Origin: Onthophagus taurus
Taxonomy: Eukaryota; Arthropoda; Insecta; Coleoptera; Scarabaeidae
Direction: 5' to 3'
DNA length: 64,000 nucleotides
Assembly (NCBI RefSeq): GCF_036711975.1
Contig: NC_091975.1
Location: 3,722,501 to 3,786,500 of the forward strand
Position 1 is the stretch's first letter. Every line of letters starts with the position of its first letter. Positions 7,310-41,092 of this stretch are shown here, in pieces. The notes beneath the pieces were generated by a model, which saw only the letters and a program-made list of their open reading frames with translations, made no database searches and had not been told where the DNA came from. Both the position numbers and the translations under genes were made by a program.

Positions 7310-8534
7310 ATGATTACGTTGTTTCATCTATATATTCTTGTATGTTTTCTTATATCTCCTATATATTCCGTCCTTTCAAACGACGGAATCTGTGTAACAA
7401 CAAAGAGGTAAAAAAAACCACATCAATAAAATTTTTCAATAATTTCAAAAATAAGCGTACTTTTCCTGCTATTTCTAGAGAAAAAGAAATTATTACTTTA
7501 TCTTCCGGAAAAACCATTGAAAAAGAAGTTTGGATCCTAGTAGAAGAATGCTGTAAAGGTTACAACCGTTACAACAACGTATCCAACAAATGTGAACCGA
7601 TTTGTGAACCAAATTGTCGATTTGGAACTTGCGTATCACCGAACGAATGTCAATGTTTCCGGGAATATTACGGAAAACTCTGCGAAAAGGAAAGCACAGA
7701 TTGCAATGACGGTTTTTGGGGCGCTAATTGCACCAAAGAATGTGATTGCAACGGATTTAATTGTCGTCAAATGAATGGAAAATGTATGTGTGGAGATGGA
7801 TTTATGGGAGAACACTGCGAAAGTGATTGCGGTAAAAATACCTTTGGATTTAATTGCACCAGTATTTGTGATTGTGTTAATGGTGTTTGCAATAAAATCA
7901 CCGGAAGTTGTACTTGCTATTTCGGATATATGGGGAAAAAGTAAGTAAAACTTATTAATTCGTTAATAGATGGCGCTATGAATTAGCTGTCAAATTATAC
8001 CTAACCTAAAAATCTTATTTTAATTTAAAATCATTTTAATTTGTTTCTTTTTAAGTTGTTCGATAAAAATTCCCGAAAGCACAACAACCATAAAAATGTA
8101 AGTACATCTAATATTTTTGCCGTATTATTTTTAAATAAATTTGCGTTTAGATATACTTCAAGTCCAGATGAAAATAACAATATATTTATTAATCCAATTA
8201 TTTCATATTGCATCCTCGGAATAGTTTTGTTAAGCGCAATTATAATTGTAATTTATTTCCAATGTTTGAAAAGAAAATCTTATGGAATGGTAAATTTATA
8301 TGCAGCGAAAATGGCTTTACCAGCACCTAATCCTGGTAGTTTTGAAAATATTAGTGATCACGATTACGAATCGATTCAATACGCACCATTACGTCAGTAA
8401 ATTAGTTATAATTATGATTTCCTTATTTATTAAAAATAATAATCTTGATTTTAGCTAAGCACATTTCGGATCCTAAATATTATCGGGGATATGAGATACC
8501 ATGTACTGTTCCGATCAATGCCAAATACAATTAA
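7310..8534 (+). CDS. Nimrod/Draper-like EGF receptor A, short paralogue
   Basis: Exons 7310-7407, 7479-7940, 8056-8097, 8151-8392 and 8455-8534 sum to 924 nt, giving 307 aa. A signal peptide starting MITLFHLYILVCFLISPIYS is followed by DGIC, a NIM domain (CCKGY) and about three EGF-like repeats. A short stalk, one membrane span (about residues 205-225) and a cytoplasmic tail with SYGMVNL and DYESIQYAPL complete the protein. The NIM domain (CCxGY) defines the Nimrod/Draper/Eater group of insect phagocytic receptors on haemocytes and glia. The ATG at 7310 is preferred to 7294 because only that frame gives a signal peptide matching the paralogue. The paralogue directly downstream has the same exon phases. 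Its tail lacks a properly spaced second YxxL, unlike the neighbour. AATAAA lies at 8545-8550. Confidence 0.75.
7966..7977 (+). promoter_or_regulatory. CTCF-like site (ATAGATGGCGCT) in receptor A intron 2
   Basis: This exact 12-mer recurs in the window at 21287, 21483 and 44886. Its core AGATGGCGC fits the conserved CTCF consensus. Binding is inferred only. Confidence 0.3.
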
Positions 8535-9027
8535 AGTTGGAGTTAATAAAGCTTTTGTTGTTTTTTAATTATTCATGTGGCGTATTATAAAACAAGTATT
8601 AATCATTACCCACAGACGCTTAAGAGGCGCACGGCTAAACTCGAATAGAATAAATTAAACTTTTGCTAATTCAAAATGTGAAATAGTAGTTGCCTACCCA
8701 AGAGTGACGTTATGAACGGGCCGTCAAGCTGTGCAACTTAAATCACTACTTTTCAAATTTTTTTTTAATTTGATTTGACAAAAATACTTTTTAATCATCT
8801 TTAAAAGTAATGTCACAAATATACAATAACTAATGTATAAATAGATGATATCATATAATAAATACATGTTATCAATCTGATAAGATAACTGATAAAACTA
8901 GACTGAAAGGTAATTTTGTACTTTTCTTATATAAACAATCTTTGAAAGTATAGTTTTTCGAAATATTATTTTAAATTAACTATAATCCTATAAAATATGA
9001 GAAAATGATTTAAAATATTTATAACCA
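8535..9027. other. spacer between tandem receptor genes
   Basis: The 493 bp between the paralogues contain the 3' end of copy A at the left and AT-rich DNA with no coding signal to the right. It presumably holds the promoter of copy B. Confidence 0.4.
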
Positions 9028-11583
9028 ATGATTGCTTTAATTATATTTGTTTTTATAGCTCCGTTATCAGCATTGGGTACTTCCAATGATGGGATTTGTG
9101 TCAATGAAACTAGGTAAAAAAAATAATAAATTGTGTTCTTATTTAACAAATTGTAACACATTTTCTTTGATTAGAGAATTACAGTATATACCTATTGCTC
9201 CTAATCAAATAATTACACGACCTCGAAATATTCCAAAAGAGTCTTGCTGCGATGGTTACGCAAACATTTCCGACAACCCTCTCAAATGCAGCCCCATTTG
9301 TGACCCCGAATGCATTTTTGGAACTTGTATTAAACCCAATCAATGTGAATGTTTGTCAGGTTACAAAGGAGAATATTGTGAAGTATTCGAAATGTTTTGC
9401 GCTGACGAATATTGGGGCAGTGATTGCGACAGAAAATGCGAATGTAACGGTTCTAATTGTACTGCATCAGAAGGAATATGTACTTGTCAAGCTGGATTTA
9501 CCGGAGAACATTGTAACATCCCTTGCGTTAAAACACATTATGGACTTAATTGCAGTGAATTGTGCGATTGTGTAAACGGAATTTGCGATGGAGTTACCGG
9601 AAGTTGTAGTTGTTATCCTGGATTTACAGGAAAAAAGTAAGAAATCCTTGTTTTTTATATTTAAAGTTAATTTAAATTGTTTTTTAAAAGTTGTTCAATG
9701 GAATGCCCCCAAGATAAATACGGTTCAAACTGCACAGAAACTTGTAAATGCGAAAACGATGCGATTTGTAACGGAATAAATGGATCATGCGAATGTAAAC
9801 CGGGGTTTCAAGGTGAATTTTGTGAAAAACCTTGCTCTAAAGGTTTTTGGGGCCCTAATTGTAGCGAAATTTGTTTATGCAGTGAAATGGATATTTGCGA
9901 TACAAAAAGTGGGAATTGTTTTTGTGAAAATGGATTTACCGGACAACAGGTAAACTTAAAAATTATTTATAAATTATAAATTTAATTTTTTTAGTGTACA
10001 AAACCTTGTGAACCAGGTTTTTGCGGGTTTGAATGTTCCCAAATATGTTCCTGTTCAAACGGAATATGTTCACCTCAAAATTGTACATGCGATTGCCCAC
10101 CGATGATGTATGGAACAAGCTGTTCTGAAAGTTGTAATTGCAATAAAGACAACACAGAAAAGTAACCATCTTTTTATCAGTTTATGCAAATTATAATCAC
10201 ACTTTATAGATGTAACCAAATTTCGGGAAAATGCGAATGTAAACCAGGTTGGATTGGACCCACATGTAACGAACCTTGCCCGGCTGGTTTTTATGGTTAT
10301 AACTGTGAAAAAGAGTGTACTTGCAATTGGAATAATACGCTTCAATGCATTAACGGGTTATGTAGATGTAAAGATGGTTTTTCAGGAGAACATTGCGATT
10401 CTAAATGTGAACCTGGTTATTATGGAAGTAATTGTACCAAGATTTGCTTTTATACTGGATTAGGTGAATTTTGAACGCTGAAAATTATTTAAATTAATCC
10501 CAATTTGATTTTAGATAATTATGTATGTGATCCAGTTCAAGGAGATATTTGTAGTTCACTTTACAACGGAACAAATTGCGGTACTTGTAAATGTATTAAT
10601 GGTTCATGTTTAAAAGGTATGTTATTTGTAACATATTTTTTGTAAGAATTATTTTTTAGGTTAGTTTTTATGTTTTGTTGTGTCTCCTAGCAACAGTAAG
10701 GCATAGACAGTAAGGTTGACAACCTTTAGAAAAAAAATTTGAATTAAATATCAATCATGATATTTTTAGGTTGTTTTTAAAAACATTTAAAATTAATTAT
10801 TATTAATAATTTTCAGATAAATGTGATTGCGATGTTGGGTATTACGGGAAATGGTGCCAGGAGCGTTGCTCGATAACAAATTATGGTAAAAATTGTGAAA
10901 ATATATGCGGATGTATTAATTGTAGAGCCACCGACGGTTATTGCAAATGCCAGGATGGTTTTAAAGGAAAAACATGTTCAGATTGTAATGAAATGATGAT
11001 GATAAAAAATGTATTATGAGATGTATTTTATTAAGATTCATTTTAGATTGTCCAGTAAGCCTTTACAACAATACAACAAATCAATGTATAAACCTGTATG
11101 AAGAAGATTCATATCATTCAATTATTTTGTATTGTGCTATTGGAAGTACTTCTATATTGGCACTAATAATGATTTTTACGATTATAATTTGCCTTAAATA
11201 TAAAAATAAAGATAGATCTTATGGTATGGTAAATCTAACAGCGCCAAAGATGTCCCTACCAACTCTACCAAGTCCAGATAATTATCTATCGGCAAATAGC
11301 AATACCTATGAAAGGGAGGAACCCGATTATGAAACTATTCCTGATACAGTACCATGTAAGGTAAACTATTTTTTTATGATAATTTAATTAAATCTATTTT
11401 TTAGCTAATTATCAAAACCTTGCCCGCGAAGATGAAATACCAAGGCATGCTCGAGAAGCCAGTTATTTTCTTGCATATGAAACCCCTCGTCATGTTCCTC
11501 AACACATCGAAATGTATACCTCCCCAACACAAGAATACGTTTTTTTAAATCGAAGTAGTATTGGTCCACATCGGAAGAATTAA
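9028..11583 (+). CDS. Nimrod/Draper-like EGF receptor B, long paralogue with ITAM
   Basis: Nine exons (9028-9113, 9175-9636, 9691-9949, 9995-10161, 10210-10463, 10515-10616, 10817-10984, 11047-11355, 11405-11583) total 1986 nt, giving 661 aa. The order is signal peptide (MIALIIFVFIAPLSALG), NIM domain (CCDGY), about nine to ten EGF-like repeats, a membrane span beginning near IILYCAIGS, and a cytoplasmic tail. The tail shares SYGMVNL with copy A and then carries YETI, seven residues, YQNL. That is a canonical ITAM, the motif Draper uses to recruit the kinase Shark during engulfment. The ITAM is assembled across the last splice junction. Exon 2 is exactly 462 bp in both paralogues. It is likely a haemocyte or glial engulfment receptor. 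Orthology to NimC, NimA or Draper is not resolved. Confidence 0.8.
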
Positions 11584-18600: not shown

Positions 18601-20659
18601 GCAATGTTAACAGTGCATGCACAAAATCAATTTTAGAAACTTAAACGTGAAGTTATTTCCCTAAATTGTAATCTCACCTAGATTACAATGTATATTTATG
18701 GATGAAACACCTTTGTTTTTCTTAGGCTTTCGATGCATAACGACTGACTACCTGTCGTTAGATAGGCTGTGTGTCAATAGACTCTGTGTTAATACTAGAA
18801 CTAACAGTAGACTGAAAACTAGAAACATTCGGATTTAATCGCACGTCTTTTAAGACGGCTAAACCCGAATGATTTCAGTTATAGGTCTTGTGTTAGTTCT
18901 AGTGATAGTGTAAAACTAGAACTAACACTAGACCTGATACTTTTTAGTTTTAGGTCGGGTAGTTTTAGTGCAATAAAAATATGCAACATAGTAATATCTT
19001 CTGTTAACTAGCGGTACCTACCACTGTCACTAGAACTAATACTAGAACTAGAAACATTTGGATTTAGCCCCACGTCTCGCAAGACGGCTAAACCCGAATG
19101 ATTCTAGTTCTAGGTTCTGTGTTAGTTCTAGTGATAGTGCTAGTGTCTAACTAGAACTAACACTAGATCTAGAACTAGAAAGTATCGGGTTTAGCCATGC
19201 GTCTCTTAAGACGGCTAAACCTGAATGTTTCTAGTTCCAGTTTTACTGCAATAAAAAAATGCAACATACTGATAGATTAGTATAGATTTTAGGCTATCTT
19301 TAGTTTATAGATGGCAAATAACGACATTTTAGTCGTTGTGCGTCGCAAACCTAAGAAACAACCGTATTTTACCCGAAAATATGCGTTTCAACCAAATGTG
19401 CTGCGAAAATATATGGTTAGCACGTCGCGTCGAAACTTTAAAGTGATTTTTCGGTAAGTTTTACACTTTTCCACATTTTTTTTATTTGTAACGGCTTACT
19501 TGAGTAATTTCTCGCCGATAAAAAAAAAATTGTCGATTTTTAAGCGACATGATGATTCTTGAATTATAGCAAAAAAAAAGCTCACCTCAGATATAATTTT
19601 AGTATGATCCATTTCCCCAGCGGTTTTTGGAGTAACACTAATCGTTGTTTCCTTATTCTCCTTTTCACTAACAGTAAATCGAACCTTTTTAGAGTGCATT
19701 GGAGAACCTTCTTTACCTAATTTACGTTTATTATGGCTCTCAACTAAATAATTATCTGGATCGTCTTCATCCTCCTCTTCAAATTCCATTTCGGTTCTAA
19801 TTTTTTGCTCCTTAACGTATTCCCGAACATCATTTAAATCGATATTTGAGGGATAATCTTTGTTTTTCTTCGGTGGATTCACATTCGCTGAGAATTTAAC
19901 CGCATCGAATGAAGTGCTAGCTCTTAATTCATCGTCTTGGGTTAATAACGGCTTGCTTGTATAAGATATGTCATCGAACGAGCTGTCGATGAGGTTAAAA
20001 GTGTTGTTTAAATCATCTTCAGGCCATTCGAAACGTGTTGGTTTTGGGGCATTATCGTACAGTGCTAAAGGATCTGCTGCGGAATTCCGTTTTTGTGATA
20101 ATGTTGAAGATGTTGTTGTTTCTGTTGAAAATAATTGAGGAGAAGACGTCCGTGAAGGTGGTTTATTGTGTTTTCGTTTCCAAACGGGTAGTTTTCTTGC
20201 TGGAGTTTCTGGGTCTGGTTTAATTTTCTTTAAATTTTGCCACGCCGTTTGTTGCTGTCGTCTTAAACTGTTTTTTATTGGTTTTCGTTGAGCATCTAAT
20301 AATTTTATTAAAATCGGGATGTTCATTAATTCGGCTGTTCTATAAAGTTTATCAAAAATTGGCATTGGAAACTCCAACATTCCCGTATACATGAAGTTCA
20401 CAATCGGAAGGATTACATCAGCTTGTAAATCATCAGGCATAACGATTGTGTTACCATCAATCATCTCACAAGTATGTTCTAAGATGTTAAAATACTCCGT
20501 ACAAGCACTCATCACTAAACGATGAACTTTCAATTGAACATTTCCTTCAAACTGTAGTGTTAGATCACAATAATCCGTTTTATTAAAGAAAACTTGCAAC
20601 CGTTGAAGGAAAAATACTCCCCAATTGTCCACCCTTACTTGTTTATTAGAATCACCCAT
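15619..20659 (-). CDS. Cp190: CP190 insulator and centrosomal protein
   Basis: Exons 19586-20659, 17484-18498 and 15619-17390 join in phases 0 and 1 to 3861 nt, giving 1286 aa (fly CP190 is 1096). The N terminus is a BTB domain with VDNWGVFFLQRLQVFFNKTD and CDLTLQF. The linker ends MDHTKIISE at the exon break, and exon 2 opens VLKRYPHLVKKNKNIKLKIM. The same junction sequence occurs in Drosophila CP190. Exon 2 then carries about five C2H2-type fingers starting GPWVCKKC and an acidic run. Exon 3 is almost entirely acidic and Asn/Glu-rich, ending with IINDWDDDDDEG, matching the fly C-terminal acid tail. CP190 is recruited by CTCF, Su(Hw) and other factors to chromatin boundaries. The ATG at 20657-20659 is chosen because it matches the fly start. 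Confidence 0.93.
18790..19262. repeat. cluster of three long palindromic repeats in CP190 intron 1
   Basis: Three hairpin-forming units lie near 18793-18903, 19029-19132 and 19149-19240. Each centre reads close to ATTCGGGTTTAGCC, a short loop, then GGCTAAACCCGAAT. Outer arms are made of CTAGAACTAACACTAG-type words in opposite orientations. Units one and two are followed by near-identical tails (GCAATAAAAA..ATGCAACATA at about 18971 and 19249), so the block also contains a direct duplication of roughly 280 bp. Partial copies of the centre occur at 29804-29850 and 33381-33440. This looks like a dispersed foldback or MITE-like family of unknown class. Confidence 0.75.
19311..19457 (+). CDS. small basic ORF nested in CP190 intron 1, opposite strand
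   Basis: A 48-codon frame starts MANNDILVVVRRKPKKQPYF and ends RRNFKVIFR, with about one quarter Lys/Arg. It is richer in CG-containing codons (CGTCGC, ACGTCGCGTCG) than the surrounding intron. The stop codon overlaps a perfect GTAAGT donor (CG|GTAAGT), so the frame might be an exon of a longer spliced gene rather than a complete protein. No signal peptide or known domain is visible. It sits directly after the palindromic repeat cluster, so it could equally belong to an inserted element. Protein expression is not shown. Confidence 0.3.
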   Translation: MANNDILVVVRRKPKKQPYFTRKYAFQPNVLRKYMVSTSRRNFKVIFR

Positions 20660-33717: not shown

Positions 33718-36700
33718 ATGTTTTTTAAATTTGCGTCAATTTTACTTCTATCAGTAACAACATTGGCTGAAGATAATTTTAGACCATGTTCGGAAATTTC
33801 ACGAGAACTCCGTTTTCCGTGTCGATGTTCTTTAGGACCAATTGAATCAGCCCTAGAAGGGAACCCAGCTATTTCAATGGATTGTGATCGAGTTGTTTTT
33901 TCAACGGATTCAACGAATGCGATTCCCTATGGGGCCCCGATTGTATCATTTCAACAAAGATACGCTGGTTATCAATCATTACCAACAAATGTAAATTATT
34001 TTTTTTGTTAAACAAATAATTATTTAATCTCCTCATTCAAGTTATTAGCTTTATCTGGACTTCCGTTGCGCTCGATCGATTTCTCCGGGAATTCTTTAAG
34101 AAGAGTAACTGAAAAATTATTATTGAAGTTGCAAAATTCTTTGGTTGAGTTGAGATTAGCCGATAATCTTCTGGGAGATACATTAAACCCGATTTTTTCA
34201 ACAAGCGAATTCCACACTTTAAAACATCTGCAAATAATTGATTTTAGTGGAAATGGGATTAAAGCAATCGAAGAAGGAATTTTTGAAGGTTGCCAAAATT
34301 TGCAAGAAATTTATTTAGACAGAAATAGTTTTTCGTTAACTCCCGGAGGATCTTTAAACGGACCAAAAAGCTTAAAAATTTTATCATTAAAAGATAACCG
34401 AATATGTAAGAAACTAAATCATCATTAATTACTTAATTTATCTTAATTTTTTAGCATTCATCAAATCAAACACATTCAGAGCGCAAAAGGACTTAGAAAT
34501 CATCGATTTTAATCGGAATTTAATCTCAAATATCGAAGGTGGTGCATTTTTCGGTTTAGAAAAGCTTCAACAACTCCGTTTAGGTCATAATAGGTTATCA
34601 AAATTTAATAGCGATGTATTTCAAGGTGCTGAAAATGCACGACACTTAGATTTAAGTGAAAATTTCATCGCTGAATTCCCATCGGTTGCGTTAAAACCAC
34701 TCGTTAATTTATTATATTTAAATTTATCATCGAATTCGATTCAAAATTTGGATAATAATGATTTGGCAACGTTTGTAAATTTATATTTTCTGGATTTAAG
34801 CAGGAATAATATTGGAAATATCGTCCCTGGAACCTTTTTGGGGTTAAAACAATTAAGAAAATTGGATATTAGTGTGAATTCATTAAGAACTGTAAGTAAA
34901 TCATAAAAATTAATATTATTTCAATACCTCAATTTGTGTATTTATTTTTTTTTAGATTGAAGATGATTCTTTTGAAGGATTGGATAATTTAGAATACCTA
35001 AACTTAAAAGACAACAACATTTTATTAATCCCAGCATCCGCTTTAGGAAGATTACCACGCTTATCGATTCTGCAATTAGATTATAATCGAATAGCTGCTT
35101 TATCGGGCGAAATTCTTCGTTCAATAGCAGAAAAAGTAACAACTTTAATTATATCAAGAAACGTTGTTAGAGAACTTCCTTCATCCACATTTCAATATTT
35201 CGAGCAATTAGAAAATTTAGATTTAACCCGAAACTTATTAACATCTCTAAACTCGGAGACGTTCAACGGGCTAGAAACAACTCTTGTAAATTTAGTCCTT
35301 TCTCAAAATAAAATAACGAATTTAAATGAAAATTTAAGTTTGAATCGACTGGAGAAATTGGATTTAAGTGAAAATCTAATTACAAATATTTCCAGTGATT
35401 ATTTTAAAGAATTGGCGAATTTAAGGAGGTTAGATTTAAGCGGGAATGTAAATTTAAGAAGTTTCCCAATAACAATTTTACACCCGTTATTAAATTTGGA
35501 GATTATCGATTTGAGCCGGGTTAAAATGAAAAGTTTATCATCTGATTTTTTTAATAAAAACGTAAAATTAAAAGAAATTTATTTAAAGGATAATGAATTG
35601 ATTGAGATATCAGAACGAAGCTTTGAAAATATGATTAATTTAACGATTTTGGATTTATCGATAAATAAAATTCAGAACATCCGTCAGTCCGCGTTTGTTA
35701 ATTTAATGAATATAAAGGAATTAATATTAAAACATAATCAATTAAGTAGCTTTAAAGGTGAATTTTTCAATACCGGAACAAGTTTGGAACTAATCGATAT
35801 CTCAAATAATCAATTAAGCTATCTATATCCGTCAAGTTTTCGCATCCACCCCAGATTAAAAACATTAAAAGCGAATAATAATAAATTTAATTTTTTCCCG
35901 GCCGAATTAATTATGGAACTCCAATTTTTAGAATTTATTGATTTATCAAAAAATTATTTAAAAGCCATCGATGAATTAGATTTTGCGCGTCTCCCAAGAC
36001 TCCGAAGTTTAATTTTAAACAACAATCAAATCGAAAACATCAACGAGATGTCTTTTCACAATTCATCTCAATTACAAGTCGTAGATTTAAGTTATAACAA
36101 ATTAGAAAGATTCGGCGAGCGCACTTTCGAAGGATTAATTCGTTTAGAATCGTTAAACTTAGAAGGTAATTTTTTGAACGATTTGCCCGAATTTGCTTTT
36201 GAACGGGCTAGATTACAAATGCTCGAAAATATAAATTTAGCAAAAAACTTATTTGAAATAGCCCCATTACGATCGTTGCAAAAACAATTCTTTTTCTTAA
36301 CTAAAGTGGATTTATCCAGGAATAAAATTGTTGATATCCCCGGAGATAACTCGATCATGGTTAACATAAAAAATTTAGACTTAAGTTTTAACCCGTTATC
36401 AGAAGACGCAATAAGCAATGTTTTAAGTGAACCGAAAACAATTCGTCACTTAAATTTAGCCGGAACTAACATAAAAAAATTATCACAATTAGAAACACCG
36501 TTCCTAACCTCGCTTAATTTGTCGTTTAATAACATCTCAGAAATCCCAATAAAAGTTTTTGAGAGAGCAACTTTACTCGAAAAACTAGATTTATCCAACA
36601 ACCAAATCAAAGAAACCTCTCATTTCCCTAAACTTTGGGAAAATTTGTTAAATTTGCAATCCTTAAACATCTCCGATAACCCAATTGAAACAATTTCCCA

Positions 36701-39534: not shown

Positions 39535-41092
39535 TTACTCTTTTTCCTTTTTAACATTTTCGACAACCTCCTCGTCTTTAACATCGTCGTCATCGCCTTC
39601 ATCCTTACTATTTTCATGTAATAGAACGTATTCCCTTGAACTAAATCCAAATTTAATTACATCCTTCTCAAGCAACTCCACATATCTCTTAGGCTCAATT
39701 TTTTTATTATTAATCAAAGTCCCATTTGCGGACTCCAAATCAATTAAATACGGCCTGACTTTTTTCCCTGTTGAACCATCATCCCTGGTAAATGGAACCA
39801 AACGATATTGTAATACAGCGTGTTGTTTTGAACATGATGGATGATCAATAGCTAAATCGACCACTTTACGCTCACGCCCAATTAAATAAGCACTTTCCCT
39901 ATGAATATAAAGAGTTTGAAGTGCTTTATCCCCTTTAAACGGATACAATCTCCAACGCCTTTTTGGTTTTCGAGCTTCTGGGGGTTCACTATACTTAATT
40001 ACCACCCCTCTATAAGTATTTGTTTCCTCTGTTAACTTTCCAGAGAGTGCAAAATTCGGTTTTTCTTTTTCTTTTTGATCCGGTTTTGTTGAGGGTTTTT
40101 CATCGTCGCCGTCTTTTCCCCATTTTGCATCTTTGTGATTAAAATCATCACTTCTACTTCGACGTCTTCGCCTGTTAAAATCATTTTTCCTCGAATCATA
40201 ATGATTTCTTCTTGATTCATAATCATTTCGTCTTGAATCATAATCATTTCTTTTTAAATCATAATCAATCCTTTTTTGATCATAATCATTTCTTTTTTGA
40301 TCATAATCATTTCTTTTTGAGCCATAATCATTCCTTTTTGAATCATAATCATTTCGTTTTGAGTCATAATCATTTCTTTTTGAGTCATAATCATTTCTTC
40401 TTGAATCATACTCATTTCTTTTTGAATCATACTCATTTCTTCTTGTATCATAATCATTTCTCCTGAATTCATAATCATTCCTCCTATAATCTCTTTCCTT
40501 TTGATCTCTATAATCATTTCTGCGATTTCTTGGCGCTTCATGTCGATTCCCTTGATGTCTAAATTCCCTTTCTTCGCCATCTCTACGTTTTGAATTCCAT
40601 GGATTAGATGGTTCCCCATATTGTCGTTCCCTTGATGGTCGTTTTGGATACCTATTTTCTGATTTATATCTATCTCGGTTATTATCATAATTTTGTTGTT
40701 CGTAATTTGATTCCGAGTGCTTGGAATGTTTTAATGGCGGTCTTTCAATCTTGTTACTACATCAAAAAACAAATTAATTATTCATTTTTAATAAAATTGT
40801 TGAAATCTTACGTCTCCTTTCTTGATTTTTCATCAGGACTGTCCCACTTTGAGTGTTCGGCTTTTGATCTAACCCCACTTTGTGATGAGCTCCTCGAACG
40901 TTTTATTTGCTTCTTTATGATTTCATTAGAAGCTTCTTTTACTATTTTAACGTTTTTGGTGTTCGACTTTTTCTTTGATTGCCTTTTTTCGTCTTCAGAT
41001 GAGTTTGAGGAGGAACTAGAACTGGAGCTAGAAGATGAGCTGTCTTCTGAGGAGGAGCTTTCATCCCGTTTCCGCTGCTTCTTCTTGTTCAT
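39535..41092 (-). CDS. Snip1: SNIP1-like FHA-domain RNA-processing protein
   Basis: Exons 40812-41092 and 39535-40756 join in phase 2 to 1503 nt, giving 500 aa. The N terminus is a basic/Ser-rich RS-like region with a long Ser run. A tandem heptad array follows, then KTRGVV-type lead-in TYRGVVIKYSEPPEARKP. The FHA domain contains AYLIGRERKVVDLAIDHPSC and SKQHAVLQYR, then LIDLESANGTLINNKKIEP. FHA order and surrounding sequence match SNIP1 (fly homologue CG17168), a nuclear factor in spliceosome and microRNA biogenesis that binds phosphothreonine. The acidic C-terminal tail is short. ARMH3 is divergent on the other side, with 473 bp between starts. Confidence 0.88.
40171..40485 (-). repeat. in-frame minisatellite in Snip1: 15 units of 21 bp
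   Basis: 315 bp encode 15 uninterrupted heptads of consensus (R/K)RNDYDS, with variants such as NEYDS, NDYGS and HYDS. All copies keep the 7-residue length. Divergence among units is mostly at third codon positions and at the final Ser. Confidence 0.9.

What the first reader, a model, noticed from the sequence alone, without database searches (positions are those of the whole stretch)
7310..11583. Tandem Nimrod/Draper-like receptors: one keeps a canonical ITAM, the other has lost its spacing
The two genes share exon phases, an identical 462-bp second exon, the SYGMVNL tail motif and a phase-1 final junction, so they come from one duplication. Copy B ends with YETI-7 residues-YQNL, which fits the ITAM rule. 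Copy A keeps YESI but has YAPL only one residue later and no correctly spaced partner. Copy B also has about six to seven extra EGF repeats. This suggests division into a signalling receptor and a short non-signalling or modulating receptor. If expressed on the same cells, A could act as a decoy.
Basis: partly seen in the sequence, partly recalled or inferred. Interest (0 to 1): 0.7.

Follow-up and report, generated by a model that had tools for sequence, protein, structure and literature searches.

The report
Tandem receptors, one missing ITAM tyrosine
Two neighbouring genes encode related Draper/Nimrod-like cell-surface receptors; one tail has a two-tyrosine activation motif, the other lacks the second tyrosine, and a protease-like gene elsewhere in the same genome carries the same kind of tail.

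Summary
The observation largely holds. Two tandem genes (A 7310-8534, B 9028-11583) encode EGF-repeat, single-pass receptors with matching intron phases and a shared tail box, SYGMVNL. B's spliced tail has YETI-x7-YQNL, a canonical ITAM. A has YESI, then YAPL one residue later, and no partner. Exon 2 is equal in length (462 bp), not identical: 275 of 462 bases and 69 of 153 residues match, so the duplication is old. (2) A is predicted to splice past its apparent stop into a homologous last exon; residue 11 after the YE tyrosine is Tyr in B, His in A. (3) At up to 2 mismatches the tail pattern occurs in one further gene: a membrane-anchored matrix-metalloproteinase relative with HQIGH for HEIGH, and YETV-x7-YQNA. 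(4) A Shark-like SH2-ankyrin-SH2 kinase gene is present. "A is non-signalling or a decoy" is not supported: A keeps other conserved tail tyrosines and matches a weak ITIM consensus. Best reading: B is an activating ITAM receptor; A is a paralogue with changed signalling. No expression or orthologue data were available.

The parts
7310..8534 (+). Gene A: 5 exons 7310-7407, 7479-7940, 8056-8097, 8151-8392, 8455-8534; 307 aa, signal-peptide-like start, reduced EMI, 1 NIM + 2 EGF-type units (counted by eye), one TM helix, tail without a full ITAM
   Evidence: splice sites and reading frame; TM; homology of the last exon
7479..7940 (+). A exon 2 (462 bp): end of the reduced EMI, NIM repeat, two EGF-type units
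8278..8298 (+). A tail box SYGMVNL
8365..8376 (+). A YESI, counterpart of the first ITAM half
8380..8391 (+). A YAPL; IQYAPL matches the ITIM consensus [SIVL]xYxx[IVL] (a match is also in 23% of shuffled A tails)
8393..8454 (+). A last intron (62 bp, donor gtcagt, C at +3); if retained, a stop follows at 8398-8400 (tail ends YAPLRQ)
8455..8534 (+). A predicted last exon KHISDPKYYRGYEIPCTVPINAKYN-stop, homologous to the last exons of B and of the C15 metalloproteinase-like gene
8460..8462 (+). CAC (His), residue 11 after the YE tyrosine, where B and the C15 gene have Tyr; whether by substitution or by loss of a short block is not resolved
   Evidence: position read
8545..8550 (+). AATAAA polyadenylation-type signal, starting 11 nt past A's stop
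9028..11583 (+). Gene B: 9 exons 9028-9113, 9175-9636, 9691-9949, 9995-10161, 10210-10463, 10515-10616, 10817-10984, 11047-11355, 11405-11583; 661 aa, signal-peptide-like start, reduced EMI, 1 NIM + about 9 EGF-type units (by eye), TM, ITAM tail
   Evidence: Pfam EGF_laminin 2.3e-16 and EGF_PEAR1L 7.9e-14; TM
9175..9636 (+). B exon 2 (462 bp), counterpart of A exon 2
11217..11237 (+). B tail box SYGMVNL
11328..11339 (+). B YETI, first ITAM half
11410..11421 (+). B YQNL, second ITAM half, 7 residues after YETI across the phase-1 junction

Best explanation
A and B are an old tandem pair of Draper-type Nimrod receptors. Both look descended from an EMI-NIM-EGF gene: they keep Draper's intron position and phase inside the EMI domain but have lost its middle. 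B is most likely an activating receptor: ligand clustering lets a Src-family kinase phosphorylate YETI and YQNL, and the two phosphotyrosines dock the tandem SH2 domains of a Shark kinase. A has no second docking tyrosine at that place, so it cannot hold both SH2 domains in cis through an ITAM. Its other conserved tyrosines remain, so it most likely signals differently (single-tyrosine docking in dimers, or a phosphatase) and is probably not inert. The tail looks like a reusable module: a membrane-anchored, probably inactive metalloproteinase relative carries it too. Shown: gene structures as predicted from sequence, motifs, tail homology, absence of the second tyrosine in A, presence of a Shark-like kinase gene. 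Inferred: splicing in vivo, phosphorylation, docking, that A lost the tyrosine and did not simply never have it, and all function.
For: Gene models with GT-AG introns in frame. ITAM in B and none in A. A's last exon aligns with the last exon of the C15 gene (0 of 5000 shuffles reach the score) and of B (1 of 5000). The YE tyrosine lies 9 residues before the same phase-1 junction in all three genes. Among 2957 AG sites of the window read in that phase, A's exon is the best hit outside B for the B query; for the C15 query it ranks third, behind two overlapping hits in another gene. EMI is detected in this genome's Draper (E 2.5e-10), not in A or B at E<=1; Draper's exon 1 also ends in phase 2, four residues after the first EMI cysteine. 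The tail pattern at up to 2 mismatches hits three genes only, reversed-pattern control 0. L066 frames match SH2, ankyrin, SH2 and tyrosine-kinase models in that order. In Drosophila, Src42A-Draper ITAM-Shark signalling is described in PMC4503800 (passages) and PMC8092387 (passages).
Against: No RNA, protein or orthologue data. An ITAM turns up in 1.8 to 7.4% of shuffles of B's tail, by definition used. The C15 tail has YQNA and fits no ITAM definition tried, so the conserved part may be YQN (an adaptor-type YxN site, recalled) and not an ITAM. The automatic alignment of whole tails put A's YESI opposite B's YQNL, against my register; aligned on either side of the junction, YESI pairs with YETI, but A's KH is then placed opposite B's RH, 12 residues further on, as if A lacked the YQN block. 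If the C15 tail was copied from B after the A/B split, the direction of change is unresolved. A's last donor, gtcagt, is unusual (C at +3).
Confidence: 0.55

Rival explanations
1. Paired activating and inhibitory receptors: B activates through its ITAM while A, through IQYAPL, recruits a SHP-type phosphatase and dampens the same response, doing by gene duplication what Drosophila Draper does by splicing (Draper-I ITAM, Draper-II ITIM).
For: IQYAPL fits the ITIM consensus; the Draper-I/Draper-II precedent is described in PMC4503800 and PMC8092387 (passages).
Against: 23% of shuffles of A's tail also hold an ITIM match, and B has one too (SNYQNL; 25% of its shuffles). A Corkscrew-type phosphatase was not looked for.
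Confidence: 0.15
2. A is a short ligand-binding decoy or modulator without signalling.
For: Short ectodomain and no ITAM.
Against: Other tail tyrosines and boxes are conserved with B and the C15 gene, which a pure decoy would not need.
Confidence: 0.12
3. A is a NimA-like adhesion protein: one NIM, two EGF units, no ITAM, working by cell contact and not by phagocytosis.
For: The same repeat count as Drosophila NimA, which promotes cell adhesion and is reported not to act as a scavenger receptor (PMC13076899, passages).
Against: That paper says the EMI domain appears to mediate adhesion, and A has no EMI match; orthology to NimA was not testable.
Confidence: 0.15
4. The conserved tail element is not an ITAM but two separate docking sites (YE[ST][IV] and a Grb2/Drk-type YxN, recalled), of which A lacks the second.
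For: YQN is shared by B and the C15 gene, but position +3 is L in one and A in the other.
Against: The seven-residue spacing across the splice junction is the same in both.
Confidence: 0.2

Closest known systems
Draper / CED-1 / MEGF10 (and this genome's own Draper, L033)
   Same: Signal-peptide-like start, EMI-region intron of the same place and phase, NIM-type repeat after CCxGY, EGF_laminin-type units, one TM, tyrosine motifs; Draper here has YLSI-x6-YDEI
   Different: A and B lack an EMI match and NPxY, and by eye have fewer EGF units and a different tail sequence
Drosophila NimA
   Same: A has one NIM and two EGF-type units and no full ITAM; repeat count of NimA from PMC13076899 (passages)
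   Different: No EMI match in A; no orthology test possible
Draper-I / Draper-II (ITAM / ITIM splice forms)
   Same: Activating and possibly non-activating tails on one ectodomain type
   Different: Two genes, not splice forms; ITIM in A only by a loose consensus
NimC / Eater type
   Same: NIM repeat
   Different: A and B have one NIM followed by EGF-type units; a many-NIM gene is elsewhere on C10 (L035)

Membership tests
Draper-type Nimrod receptor | EMI domain | tested here: not met
   No EMI match for A or B at E<=1; only its start, end and intron remain
Draper-type Nimrod receptor | NIM-type repeat following CCxGY, then EGF units, TM | tested here: met
   in A the best Pfam EGF match (EGF_PEAR1L, 33.7 bits) is below its cut-off of 37.5
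Draper-type Nimrod receptor | NPxY in the tail | tested here: not met
   none in A or B; NPVY in L033 Draper
ITAM receptor (B) | YxxI/L-x(6-12)-YxxI/L in the cytoplasmic tail | tested here: met
   YETI-x7-YQNL
ITAM receptor (B) | phosphorylation and binding of a tandem-SH2 kinase | not testable with these tools
   a kinase gene of the right domain order is present
ITAM receptor (A) | two spaced YxxI/L | tested here: not met
   on the tail with the predicted last exon
ITIM receptor (A) | [SIVL]xYxx[IVL] | tested here: inconclusive
   IQYAPL present, but 23% of shuffles match
NimA | orthology and EMI | tested here: inconclusive
   repeat count fits, EMI not found, no insect orthologues available

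The most novel reading that the evidence does not exclude
An insect-type genome uses one tyrosine-signalling tail module on two kinds of ectodomain: a tandem pair of Nimrod receptors that has split into an activating (ITAM) and an inhibitory or single-tyrosine form, and a membrane-anchored pseudo-metalloproteinase whose dead active site would sense matrix or substrates and signal through the same tail.
Probability: 0.15. Interest if true: 0.75.

Novelty: new variant of a known kind. Interest (0 to 1): 0.45.

Why it matters
If true, it shows an ITAM lost after duplication of an invertebrate engulfment-type receptor, and the same tail placed on an unrelated, probably inactive protease ectodomain. 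That would give a simple natural test of how paired activating and non-activating receptors arise outside vertebrates. Drosophila Draper reaches a similar split by splicing (PMC4503800, passages).

Tried and rejected
Considered A ending at the in-frame TAA 8398-8400: kept only as a possible intron-retention form, because the downstream exon is homologous to two other last exons at the same junction. A control (best score elsewhere in 8401-9027, 38) was flawed because neighbouring windows overlapped the exon; one search replaces it. I first read A's change as a plain Tyr-to-His substitution; one search leaves open a loss of the YQN block, so I claim only that the tyrosine is absent at that place. 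Considered A and B as one transcript: each has start, signal-like start, TM and stop, and A has AATAAA, but an in-frame hybrid of A exon 2 to B exon 3 (both phase 2) is not excluded. Looked for an EMI-bearing NimA: EMI only in Draper and one weak C2 match, whose listed cysteine-rich frames did not look Nimrod-like to me. Looked for telomere repeats to place the insect order: none of four motifs in L067/L068; of L060 only the first 400 bases, all N, were printed. So 'beetle' is not established. (bacterial promoter scan of 100 bases) was of no use. No structure prediction was run. The prokaryotic, viral, phage and plasmid collections were not searched. Literature: (Nimrod, NimA, Draper, ITAM together) found 0 papers; the titles listed (6 of 6; 20 of 32; 15 of 47; 10 of 31; 6 of 6; 12 of 49; 10 of 16) showed nothing on such a tandem pair or tail. 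Passages only were read of PMC13076899, PMC2375007, PMC8092387, PMC2395250, PMC12065747 and PMC4503800.

Full report
What is there. The window lies in a 291-Mb genome of 33 contigs, at C10:3722501-3786500. Between an Ndc1 nucleoporin gene and a TAF10 gene (Pfam) lie two genes on the + strand. Gene A (7310-8534, 5 exons, 307 aa) and gene B (9028-11583, 9 exons, 661 aa) each have GT-AG introns, an open frame, a hydrophobic start and one membrane helix by a hydropathy scan. Pfam sees EGF_laminin and PEAR1-like EGF over cut-off in B, and in A PEAR1-like EGF at 33.7 bits, below its cut-off of 37.5.

The duplication. Introns 1 and 2 are phase 2 and the last is phase 1 in both. Exon 2 is 462 bp in both, but 275 of 462 bases and 69 of 153 residues match; each has 24 cysteines, which line up without a gap. 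The duplication is therefore old. By my count A has one NIM and two EGF-type units, B one NIM and about nine.

Relation to Draper. This genome's Draper is 2 Mb away on the same contig (L033), with an EMI domain (E 2.5e-10), NPVY and YLSI-x6-YDEI. Its first exon also ends in phase 2, four residues after the first EMI cysteine, as in A and B. A and B have no EMI match at E<=1: the middle of the domain is missing. They look Draper-type by descent but fail two Draper features, EMI and NPxY.

The tails. B reads DYETIPDTVPSNYQNL, a YxxI-x7-YxxL ITAM; of 20,000 shuffles of its tail 1.8% (x6-8), 4.1% (x6-12) or 7.4% (x6-12, V allowed) hold one. A reads DYESIQYAPL up to a phase-1 donor gtcagt. The in-frame TAA that follows (8398-8400) would lie in a 62-bp intron. 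The next exon (8455-8534) aligns with the last exon of the C15 gene (0 of 5000 shuffles reach the score) and of B (1 of 5000). Among 2957 acceptor-like sites of the window read in that phase it is the best hit outside B for the B query; for the C15 query it ranks third, behind two overlapping hits at 34560-34584 in another gene, one scoring higher (47) and one equal (43). An AATAAA starts 11 nt past its stop. No GT between YESI and the acceptor restores an ITAM (sites; frames are my reading).

The register. In all three genes the YE tyrosine lies nine residues before the same phase-1 junction, and residue 11 after it is Y in B, Y in the C15 gene and H in A. Against this, the automatic alignment of whole tails set A's YESI opposite B's YQNL. 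Aligned on each side of the junction, YESI pairs with YETI, but A's KH is placed opposite B's RH, 12 residues further on, as if the YQN block were missing. So the second tyrosine is absent in A, by substitution or by loss of a block; which is open.

A third user of the tail. A DNA pattern for the tail box at up to 2 mismatches finds three places in the genome, with 0 in the reversed control; a protein search at E<=1 returns the same three genes. More diverged tails could be missed. The third is at C15:5522946-5524803 (L034 6447-8304, 7 exons, 424 aa): a matrixin (Pfam E 8.5e-56, no hemopexin match; best solved relative stromelysin-1) with PRCG retained, a TM helix, and HQIGH in place of HEIGH. 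The other five metalloproteinase loci fetched for this keep the glutamate (HEIGH, HEFGH or HELGH); the two closest compared, L055 and L056, match it at 52 and 49 of 76 residues and have hemopexin repeats. Replacement of the catalytic Glu implies loss of protease activity (recalled for matrixins). Its tail reads YETV-x7-YQNA. It shares YQN with B; A lacks it. Loss in A is the simplest reading if A and B are sisters and the C15 tail is not a copy of B's; this was not resolved.

How it probably works. In Drosophila, Src42A phosphorylates the Draper ITAM and Shark binds; Draper-II, with an ITIM, opposes it through Corkscrew (PMC4503800 and PMC8092387, passages). A gene with SH2, ankyrin, SH2 and tyrosine-kinase frames in that order, the Shark layout, is present here (L066). 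B fits that scheme. A cannot hold both SH2 domains in cis through an ITAM. It keeps the SYGM, YE and Y..YExP tyrosines, so silence is unlikely; hemITAM-like docking in dimers (recalled) or an ITIM-like role (IQYAPL, but 23% of shuffles match) are open. A NimA-like adhesion role also fits its repeat count (PMC13076899, passages).

Limits. There are no orthologues, no RNA and no proteins; the insect order is not established; the sequence collections on offer are prokaryotic, viral or metagenomic and were not searched. The Tribolium immune paper (PMC2375007, passages) reports NimA, NimB and NimC homologues but says nothing on tails in the passages read.

Noticed in passing
L034 6447-8304 (G000 C15:5522946-5524803): Matrix-metalloproteinase-like gene with HQIGH, no hemopexin match, a TM helix and the A/B-type tail: a probable signalling pseudoprotease.
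   Followed up: partly
G000 genome-wide; e.g. L037 and L039 1186-2820: Among 63 Peptidase_M10 matches many lie in long single frames of about 490-570 aa, several with equal scores, dispersed over contigs; two copies viewed share the same neighbouring frames, so they seem to travel in a repeated, virus- or transposon-like element.
   Followed up: partly
G000 C10: L033, L035, window, L054: Draper, a many-NIM (NimC/Eater-like) gene, A/B and what look like two tandem NIM-repeat genes lie at about 1.74, 2.51, 3.73 and 4.50 Mb of one contig: a dispersed Nimrod neighbourhood.
   Followed up: partly
window 8619-8644 (+) and 19185-19210 (-): Interspersed repeat: the string at 8619-8644 between A and B (used as the query) recurs with 3 mismatches at 19185-19210 (0 expected in shuffles); similar strings are visible in L033 and L034.
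   Followed up: no
window 40179-40479: 21-bp tandem repeat, about 14 copies, 86% matches.
   Followed up: no
window 8393-8454: A's last intron has the donor gtcagt, the only one with C at +3 among the 18 donors of the three gene models; retention would give a shorter tail.
   Followed up: partly
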